From contig NZ_MAOC01000027.1 of assembly GCF_001884135.1 (NCBI RefSeq), positions 62,001 to 126,000 on the forward strand: a stretch of DNA of 64,000 nt, read 5' to 3'. The notes beneath the pieces are model-generated. The model was not told where the DNA came from. It searched no databases and saw only the letters and a program-made list of their open reading frames with translations. Shown here one piece after another: positions 36,037 through 36,064 of the stretch (position 1 is its first letter; every line of letters begins with the position of its first letter). The stretch comes from Bacillus nitratireducens (GTDB taxonomy: Bacteria > Bacillota > Bacilli > Bacillales > Bacillaceae_G). Both the position numbers and the translations under genes were made by a program.

Positions 36037-36064
36037 AGTTAACATAATATATATTATAGGCAGT
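36037..36064 (-). other. dif: dif site (XerC/XerD chromosome-dimer resolution site)
   Basis: Read on the - strand the 28 bases consist of a XerC arm ACTGCCTATAA, a TATATA centre and a XerD arm TTATGTTAACT. Compared with the B. subtilis dif as I remember it, 25 of 28 positions agree, and the differences fall at positions that vary among Firmicutes dif sites. Gene orientation flips here: most genes to the left are on the + strand and most to the right on the - strand. The site is where CodV/RipX (XerC/XerD) would resolve chromosome dimers at the terminus. Confidence 0.9.

What the first reader, a model, noticed from the sequence alone, without database searches (positions are those of the whole stretch)
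36037..36064. A dif site marks the replication terminus, with a clear switch in gene strand at that point
Seen: the - strand carries XerC-arm ACTGCCTATAA, centre TATATA and XerD-arm TTATGTTAACT. Around it, roughly 28 of 37 genes to the left are on the + strand and about 24 of 28 to the right are on the - strand. Known: Firmicutes dif sites have this 28-base structure, and genes tend to follow replication direction. Inference: the two replichores meet here, which explains the accessory, decaying character of the whole window.
Basis: partly seen in the sequence, partly recalled or inferred. Interest (0 to 1): 0.75.

Follow-up and report, generated by a model that had tools for sequence, protein, structure and literature searches.

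The report
Chromosome dif site with flanking palindrome
The site is the ordinary recombination site where a Bacillus chromosome finishes copying and separates its two copies; beside it lies a worn copy of a palindrome that some large Bacillus plasmids and phages also carry next to their own dif sites, which may be an unrecognised control part.

Summary
A single dif site lies at 36037-36064 (- strand), 0 mismatches to the pattern, none in 100 shuffles. The GC-skew peak (35693) and the best gene-strand split fall at or beside it. It is a known thing: dif of the Bacillus cereus group is published, and the 24-mer printed for B. thuringiensis is contained in this site. A whole-chromosome test was impossible because no genome is held.

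The new part is beside it. The XerC side, not the XerD side, resembles a B. amyloliquefaciens terminus contig. From there the search led to plasmids and phages of Bacillus and related genera, where dif is followed after 20-22 nt by a 35-36 nt near-palindrome, GTCTCA-n-AGTATACT-n-TGAGAC. In 23 records (4.86 Mb) a strict form occurs at 13 places, each 20-22 nt from dif. A profile without dif and without this window finds its best match in the window at 36124-36090 (18.9 bits; best of 100 shuffles 14.2). The window's copy is worn: it does not fold as most others do.

Most likely it is an accessory site controlling Xer recombination. That function is inferred.

The parts
36037..36064 (-). dif: XerC arm 36054-36064, centre 36048-36053, XerD arm 36037-36047
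   Evidence: Only match in the window, 0 mismatches, 0 in 100 shuffles; 24 of 28 bases identical to the dif printed for B. thuringiensis in PMC8116677.
36065..36086 (+). 22-nt spacer between the XerC arm and the palindrome
   Evidence: Spacer is 20-22 nt in 18 of 18 aligned elements and 21 nt in L071.
36087..36121 (+). worn copy of the dif-linked near-palindrome (GTATCA ... TGAGAC, 35 nt); right arm TGAGAC 36116-36121 intact, left arm one mismatch, centre altered
   Evidence: Profile built without dif and without the window: best match in 64 kb at 36124-36090 (-), 18.9 bits, then 36083-36125 (+), 7.3 bits; best elsewhere 4.1 bits; best in 100 shuffled windows 14.2. The exact register rests on alignment A2.
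36444..36454 (+). second exact XerD half-site, no XerC half; possible lone XerD-binding site
   Evidence: AGTTAACATAA occurs twice in the window, here and in dif; shuffles give 0.13 on average. Near matches are not enriched: 13 with up to 1 mismatch against 9.9, sd 3.6. Role is inference.
35831..35876 (+). stem-loop and T run after the left-hand convergent gene (35390-35803)
   Evidence: Read by eye from the sequence; the terminator scan, which allows loops of 3-8 only, does not list it.

Best explanation
This is the chromosomal dif site of a Bacillus cereus-group-like genome. The host recombinases XerC and XerD (CodV and RipX in B. subtilis) bind its two 11-bp arms and turn chromosome dimers into monomers at the terminus, where the two replichores meet. 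In at least some Bacillus-type replicons dif is a two-part site: 20-22 nt beyond the XerC arm lies a 35-36 nt near-palindrome. I think it most likely that a symmetric host DNA-binding protein binds this palindrome and sets when or in which direction recombination runs, much as accessory DNA does at the plasmid site cer. Shown: dif, the skew and strand switch, the palindrome's fixed spacing and its restriction to dif in the records searched. Inferred: that a protein binds it, and what it does. In this window the palindrome is a worn copy that keeps one intact arm and, by alignment, its register.
For: dif unique in the window; skew and strands switch there; published for the group. Palindrome: flank similarity on the XerC side only (2 of 2000 shuffles as good; XerD side 415 of 2000). 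Found on plasmids of Bacillus, Cytobacillus, Mesobacillus, Peribacillus and Terribacillus and on Bacillus phages. Spacer 20-22 nt in 18 of 18, length 35 nt in 16 and 36 in 2. Strict palindrome pattern: 13 places in 13 of 23 records, each beside dif, none elsewhere in 4.86 Mb. Arms vary together: 31 cells changed on both sides against 14.6 in shuffles, 0 of 500 as high; slid controls at most 19. The one dif each of Listeria, S. aureus and E. faecalis examined lacks it. Window match 18.9 bits, 0 of 100 shuffles as high.
Against: No binding protein was found or sought here. The window's own copy folds no better than shuffles on the + strand (z -0.7; -2.8 on -) while 15 of 18 others reach -4.2 or below on +. 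The window's best profile hit is on the - strand; the in-register + match alone is weak (7.3 bits, E 0.24). The 18 aligned elements were found by similarity to the element and several are close kin, so their conservation is partly a result of how they were found. Two of the five pair measures were not clearly above shuffles (47 and 84 of 500 as high). Priestia: 3 of 4 plasmid loci lack it; the fourth has a similar palindrome about 95 nt from dif. Two loci have only the left arm (L017, L026). A review says the pumps SftA and SpoIIIE act in concert with the recombinases (PMC13220808, passages), so a separate control is not required.
Confidence: 0.55

Rival explanations
1. Plain dif. The 28 bp do all the work in this genome, and the palindrome here is a relic without function.
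For: The window's copy is worn and does not fold well. The review PMC5357621 describes Bsdif as a 28-bp site (passages).
Against: The flank still gives the best profile match in 64 kb, with the right arm intact and in register by alignment. In the records searched the strict palindrome occurs only beside dif.
Confidence: 0.25
2. The palindrome works as an RNA hairpin: a transcription terminator or insulator that keeps transcripts of the - strand genes out of dif.
For: Nearest annotated neighbours converge on dif in 19 of 24 Bacillaceae loci. Arms vary together and 15 of 18 fold, with RNA parameters, at z of -4.2 or below. Some have T runs on the dif side of the - strand (by eye, sequences).
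Against: The terminator scan does not list it in L014 or L007, the two loci scanned. I would not expect a terminator to keep GTCTCA, the centre and a fixed spacing across genera. It is also present where the nearest annotated right-hand gene is over 300 nt from it (L002, L007, L009, L018).
Confidence: 0.12
3. The palindrome is a replication-fork barrier, making dif the true end of replication.
For: On 4 of 7 plasmids tested the GC-skew switch lies within 130 bp of dif (100-base bins) although the estimated origin is only 0.33-0.39 of the circle away.
Against: On 3 of 7 the switch is 5.8-22.6 kb away. The skew switch may simply follow gene orientation, which changes in the same gap. It is not an RTP Ter site: a recalled Ter consensus finds two sites beside the RTP gene in L004 but none in L014 or the window, and RTP passes its cut-off in only 2 of 23 records.
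Confidence: 0.08
4. Not dif, or not the terminus: a chance match or a prophage attachment site.
For: No whole genome could be searched. Some viral contigs carry dif-like sites (L150-L152).
Against: 0 in 100 shuffles; skew and strand switch coincide; contains the 24-mer published as B. thuringiensis dif, which maps where GC skew changes sign.
Confidence: 0.02

Closest known systems
Bsdif of Bacillus subtilis with CodV/RipX (XerC/XerD)
   Same: 28 bp, two 11-bp arms, 6-bp centre, terminus position; same recombinase family expected.
   Different: Described as 28 bp only in the passages I could read; the primary paper (Sciochetti 2001) is not held, so I cannot say whether its flank was noted.
dif of the B. 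cereus group (PMC3210476, PMC8116677)
   Same: The 24-mer printed for B. thuringiensis is contained in this site; dif lies near the GC-skew extreme.
   Different: The section and passages I read do not mention a flanking palindrome.
Plasmid resolution sites cer (ColE1) and psi (pSC101)
   Same: An Xer core site with accessory DNA beside it. That the accessory DNA lies on the XerC side is recalled.
   Different: cer has a 30-bp core and accessory sequences of about 180 bp bound by ArgR and PepA (PMC5357621, passages). Here the accessory part is 35-36 nt and palindromic, and lies beside chromosomal dif too; no binding protein is known to me.
RTP-Ter replication terminators of B. subtilis
   Same: Short dyad sites in the terminus region (recalled).
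   Different: Recalled Ter consensus absent from L014 with the element and from the window.

Membership tests
dif (XerCD chromosome dimer resolution site) | 28 bp with XerC arm, 6-bp centre and XerD arm | tested here: met
   0 mismatches at 36037-36064.
dif (XerCD chromosome dimer resolution site) | Unique on the chromosome | tested here: inconclusive
   Unique in the 64-kb window; no genome held.
dif (XerCD chromosome dimer resolution site) | At or near the GC-skew extreme and strand switch | tested here: met
   Peak 344 bp away in the window; best gene split is the gap that holds dif. Whole chromosome not testable.
dif (XerCD chromosome dimer resolution site) | Host encodes XerC and XerD | not testable with these tools
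   No genome held.
dif (XerCD chromosome dimer resolution site) | Translocase-orienting motif switches polarity at dif | tested here: inconclusive
   GAGAAGGG only 3 times in the window (motif recalled).
Extended dif with XerC-side palindrome (as defined here) | Near-palindrome 20-22 nt beyond the XerC arm, 35-36 nt long | tested here: met
   35 nt at offset 22 in alignment A2; profile match at this place. The significant match is on the - strand; the + match alone is weak, so the exact register rests on the alignment.
Extended dif with XerC-side palindrome (as defined here) | Arms pair into a hairpin better than shuffles | tested here: not met
   z -0.7 (+) and -2.8 (-) in the window against -4.2 or below on + in 15 of 18. 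So the window is filed as a worn relative, not a full member.
cer/psi-type accessory site | Accessory DNA bound by ArgR/PepA or ArcA/PepA that imposes resolution only | not testable with these tools
   Binding cannot be tested here; likeness is of layout only.
RTP Ter site | Matches the Ter consensus (recalled) | tested here: not met
   0 matches in window and L014; 2 beside the RTP gene in L004 as a positive control.

The most novel reading that the evidence does not exclude
In Bacillus and its near kin dif is a two-part site. A palindrome on the XerC side binds an unidentified symmetric host protein that gates XerCD recombination, so that resolution need not be switched on by direct contact with an FtsK-type pump. 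Large plasmids and plasmid-like phages carry the whole two-part site at their own termini and so use the host's chromosome-separation machinery; the B. cereus group keeps a divergent version.
Probability: 0.35. Interest if true: 0.75.

Novelty: new variant of a known kind. Interest (0 to 1): 0.5.

Why it matters
dif itself is textbook. The palindrome would matter because a review of Xer systems lists how SpoIIIE and SftA activate recombination in Bacillus as an open question, and says neither directly activates CodV or RipX (PMC5357621, passages). A conserved control site next to the XerC arm gives a place to look, testable in a laboratory strain. It may also help to find the terminus of large Bacillus plasmids and phages: on 4 of 7 plasmids tested the skew switch is within 130 bp of it, on 3 of 7 it is not.

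Tried and rejected
Whole-chromosome skew: no genome held. Relatives in genome contigs: exact dif 0, relatives of the DnaN-like protein 0, so close kin seem not to be in that collection and I cannot say how general the window's version is. Viral contigs with exact or near dif patterns: 0. Phages with the bare dif region: partial matches, best E 0.01, 20 of 106 records listed. B. cereus-type flank on plasmids: the best-ranked hit both times was the B. amyloliquefaciens contig (20 of 99 and 30 of 107 records listed). SpoIIIE octamer polarity: too few sites. Octamers that switch at dif are mostly A/G-rich and look like composition. RTP Ter: rejected. Priestia palindrome at about 95 nt: 1 of 4 loci, so no claim about helical phasing.

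Literature: 10 searches used. In nothing that I saw was a palindrome beside Bacillus dif described; I saw listings, abstracts and passages, and of PMC3210476 section 12 whole. Sciochetti 2001 and Karaboja 2021 are not held, so prior description is possible.

Full report
What was checked. The window holds one dif site at 36037-36064 on the - strand, with no mismatch to a partly recalled Bacillota pattern and no match in 100 shuffled windows. The cumulative GC skew peaks at 35693; the best two-part split of G against C is at 35795 (dif is 4.2 log units down, just outside the 3-unit range 31080-35951), and that of A against T at 36169. Of 65 ORFs kept out of 79, 30 of 38 on the left are + and 25 of 27 on the right are -, and the best split of strands lies between 35803 and 36465, the gap that holds dif.

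Whose genome. No genome is held for the window. The 24-mer CCTATAATATATATTATGTTAACT printed as dif of B. thuringiensis in PMC8116677 (passages) is contained in this site. A DnaN-like gene lies near the terminus, presumably a second copy. I infer a B. cereus-group chromosome. The collection of species genomes gave no exact dif and no relative of that DnaN, so close kin seem to be missing there.

What is already known. PMC3210476, section 12 (read whole), gives dif and GC-skew positions for 15 genomes of the group, 0.1 to 31 kb apart. PMC3025954 (passages) reports a unique dif in each of 17 Bacillus strains. As a dif site this finding is ordinary.

What is not ordinary. A similarity search with the dif region hit a B. 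amyloliquefaciens contig filed as a plasmid (NZ_CP154897.1). It carries an RTP gene and looks like a piece of chromosome terminus. With dif removed, the XerC-side flanks align better than all but 2 of 2000 shuffles, the XerD-side flanks no better than 415 of 2000. Searching with that contig and then with a plasmid copy found the same element on more plasmids, 21 of 56 matching records covering at least 80% of the query, and on the Bacillus phages FADO, PJN02 and 2S-4.

Anatomy. dif is followed by 20-22 nt, then GTCTCA (ATCTCA in L025), about 6 nt, usually AAGTATACTT, about 6 nt, TGAGAC, often RGAA. The stretch from GTCTCA to TGAGAC is 35 nt in 16 and 36 nt in 2 of 18 elements. In alignment A1 TCTC, TGAGAC and AG of the centre are invariant in 18 of 18. 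Pairs between arms hold in 83.4% of cells (shuffles 76.9%); 31 cells are changed on both sides against 14.6 (sd 2.8) in shuffles, 0 of 500 as high, and slid versions reach 19 at most. Two counts in the same call were less clear: pairs with a change on both sides (47 of 500 shuffles as high) and further pair types (84 of 500). Folded with RNA parameters, 15 of 18 + strands reach z -4.2 or below; the other three are at -1.5 to -2.2.

Tied to dif. In 23 records, 4.86 Mb, nearly all of them picked because they carry the element, a dif-like site with up to 2 mismatches occurs in all 23 and once only in 20. A strict palindrome pattern occurs at 13 places in 13 records, each 20-22 nt from dif, and nowhere else in them. 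Of the other 10, seven differ in the centre or an arm, two have the left arm only, and one, Priestia, has no palindrome at the usual place. One other, L052, has a 19 of 22 site far from its palindrome. This is the least biased evidence, since the other elements were found by likeness to the whole.

Who lacks it. The dif flanks of one Listeria, one S. aureus and one E. faecalis record give no profile match there. Of 4 Priestia plasmid loci 3 lack it and one has a similar palindrome about 95 nt away. L017 and L026 have only the left arm.

Setting on plasmids. Nearest annotated genes converge on dif in 19 of 24 Bacillaceae loci (L002, L005-L018, L021-L029); three others are - and -, one overlaps a gene, one has no right-hand gene in view. 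Several of the 24 are close kin. The three Priestia loci fetched later are not in this count. On 7 of the 23 records I computed the skew switch in 100-base bins: it lies 48, 69, 91 and 130 bp from dif in four, and 5.8, 22.5 and 22.6 kb away in three. A tyrosine recombinase domain is found in 15 of 23 records, so 8 show none and would need the host's; one of the 8 is a viral contig that may be a fragment.

The window's copy. A profile of the flank, without dif and without the window, scanned over both strands of 64 kb, puts its two best matches beside dif: 36124-36090 (-), 18.9 bits, E 5.9e-5, and 36083-36125 (+), 7.3 bits, E 0.24; the next elsewhere has 4.1 bits. The best of 100 shuffled windows has 14.2 bits. 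In alignment A2 the window shows GTATCA at offset 22 and an intact TGAGAC at the usual place. But its centre is changed and it folds at z -0.7 (+) or -2.8 (-). I call it a worn or divergent relative.

How it likely works. XerC and XerD recombining at dif is established for Bacillus (review passages). The palindrome's fixed spacing, its fixed letters and its symmetry fit a site for a symmetric DNA-binding protein next to the XerC arm. The layout recalls cer, where accessory DNA and proteins allow resolution only (PMC5357621, passages). The same review says neither Bacillus pump directly activates the recombinases, though another says they act in concert (PMC13220808, passages). From recall, and not from a call, recombination at B. 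subtilis dif did not need them. A separate accessory control would fit. The protein and its effect are inference.

Rivals. A relic, a terminator, a fork barrier and a chance site are weighed in the rival list. The terminator scan lists none at the element in L014 or L007, the two loci scanned, and the recalled Ter consensus is absent from L014 and the window but present twice beside the RTP gene.

Second XerD half-site. AGTTAACATAA recurs at 36444-36454, 380 bp from dif and in the same direction; two copies in 64 kb against 0.13 in shuffles, while sites with up to one mismatch are not enriched, 13 against 9.9, sd 3.6. XerD is reported to unload SMC at the terminus in B. subtilis (cited in PMC13342612 and PMC12322038, passages; the primary paper is not held). 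It may be a lone XerD site; this is a guess made after the fact.

Verdict. The finding as given is confirmed and known. The flanking palindrome is a new variant of a known kind of site as far as the papers I could see go, well supported as a sequence element on Bacillus plasmids and phages, moderately supported in this window, and of unknown function.

Noticed in passing
window 36444-36454: Second exact XerD half-site 380 bp from dif, same direction, without an XerC half; candidate lone XerD (SMC-unloading) site.
   Followed up: partly
window 27660-28790: A DnaN-like sliding clamp (TIGR00663) about 7 kb from dif, presumably a second copy; its best-listed plasmid relative is only 43% identical.
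   Followed up: partly
window 32533-33255: A protein with a LAGLIDADG_3 domain (Pfam) 2.8 kb from dif.
   Followed up: no
window 8262-8361: Purine riboswitch on the - strand, upstream of an MFS transporter gene at 7037-8203 whose best NCBIfam match, Cmx/CmrA, is below that family's cut-off.
   Followed up: no
L007 record NZ_AP025341.1, 194915-195253: A 200-kb B. paralicheniformis plasmid carries its own RTP replication-terminator gene, about 9 kb round the circle from its dif and palindrome.
   Followed up: no
L071 3-1592: On a 215-kb viral contig with dif and palindrome, an ORF that looks like an FtsK/SpoIIIE-type DNA pump lies about 3 kb from dif; read by eye from the translation, not searched.
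   Followed up: no
L150, L151, L152: Low-GC viral contigs share a dif-like site with an exact XerD arm (AGTTAACATAA) and a poor XerC arm, beside a stem-loop seen by eye; perhaps phages that integrate at dif.
   Followed up: no
NZ_CP154897.1 and NZ_CP030101.1: Records filed as plasmids that look like chromosome: a B. amyloliquefaciens terminus piece with RTP, and a 2.9-Mb Listeria monocytogenes record.
   Followed up: partly
L003 (Listeria dif), XerC side: The Listeria dif flank has no such palindrome but its - strand folds strongly (z -6.9): a different hairpin in the same place.
   Followed up: no
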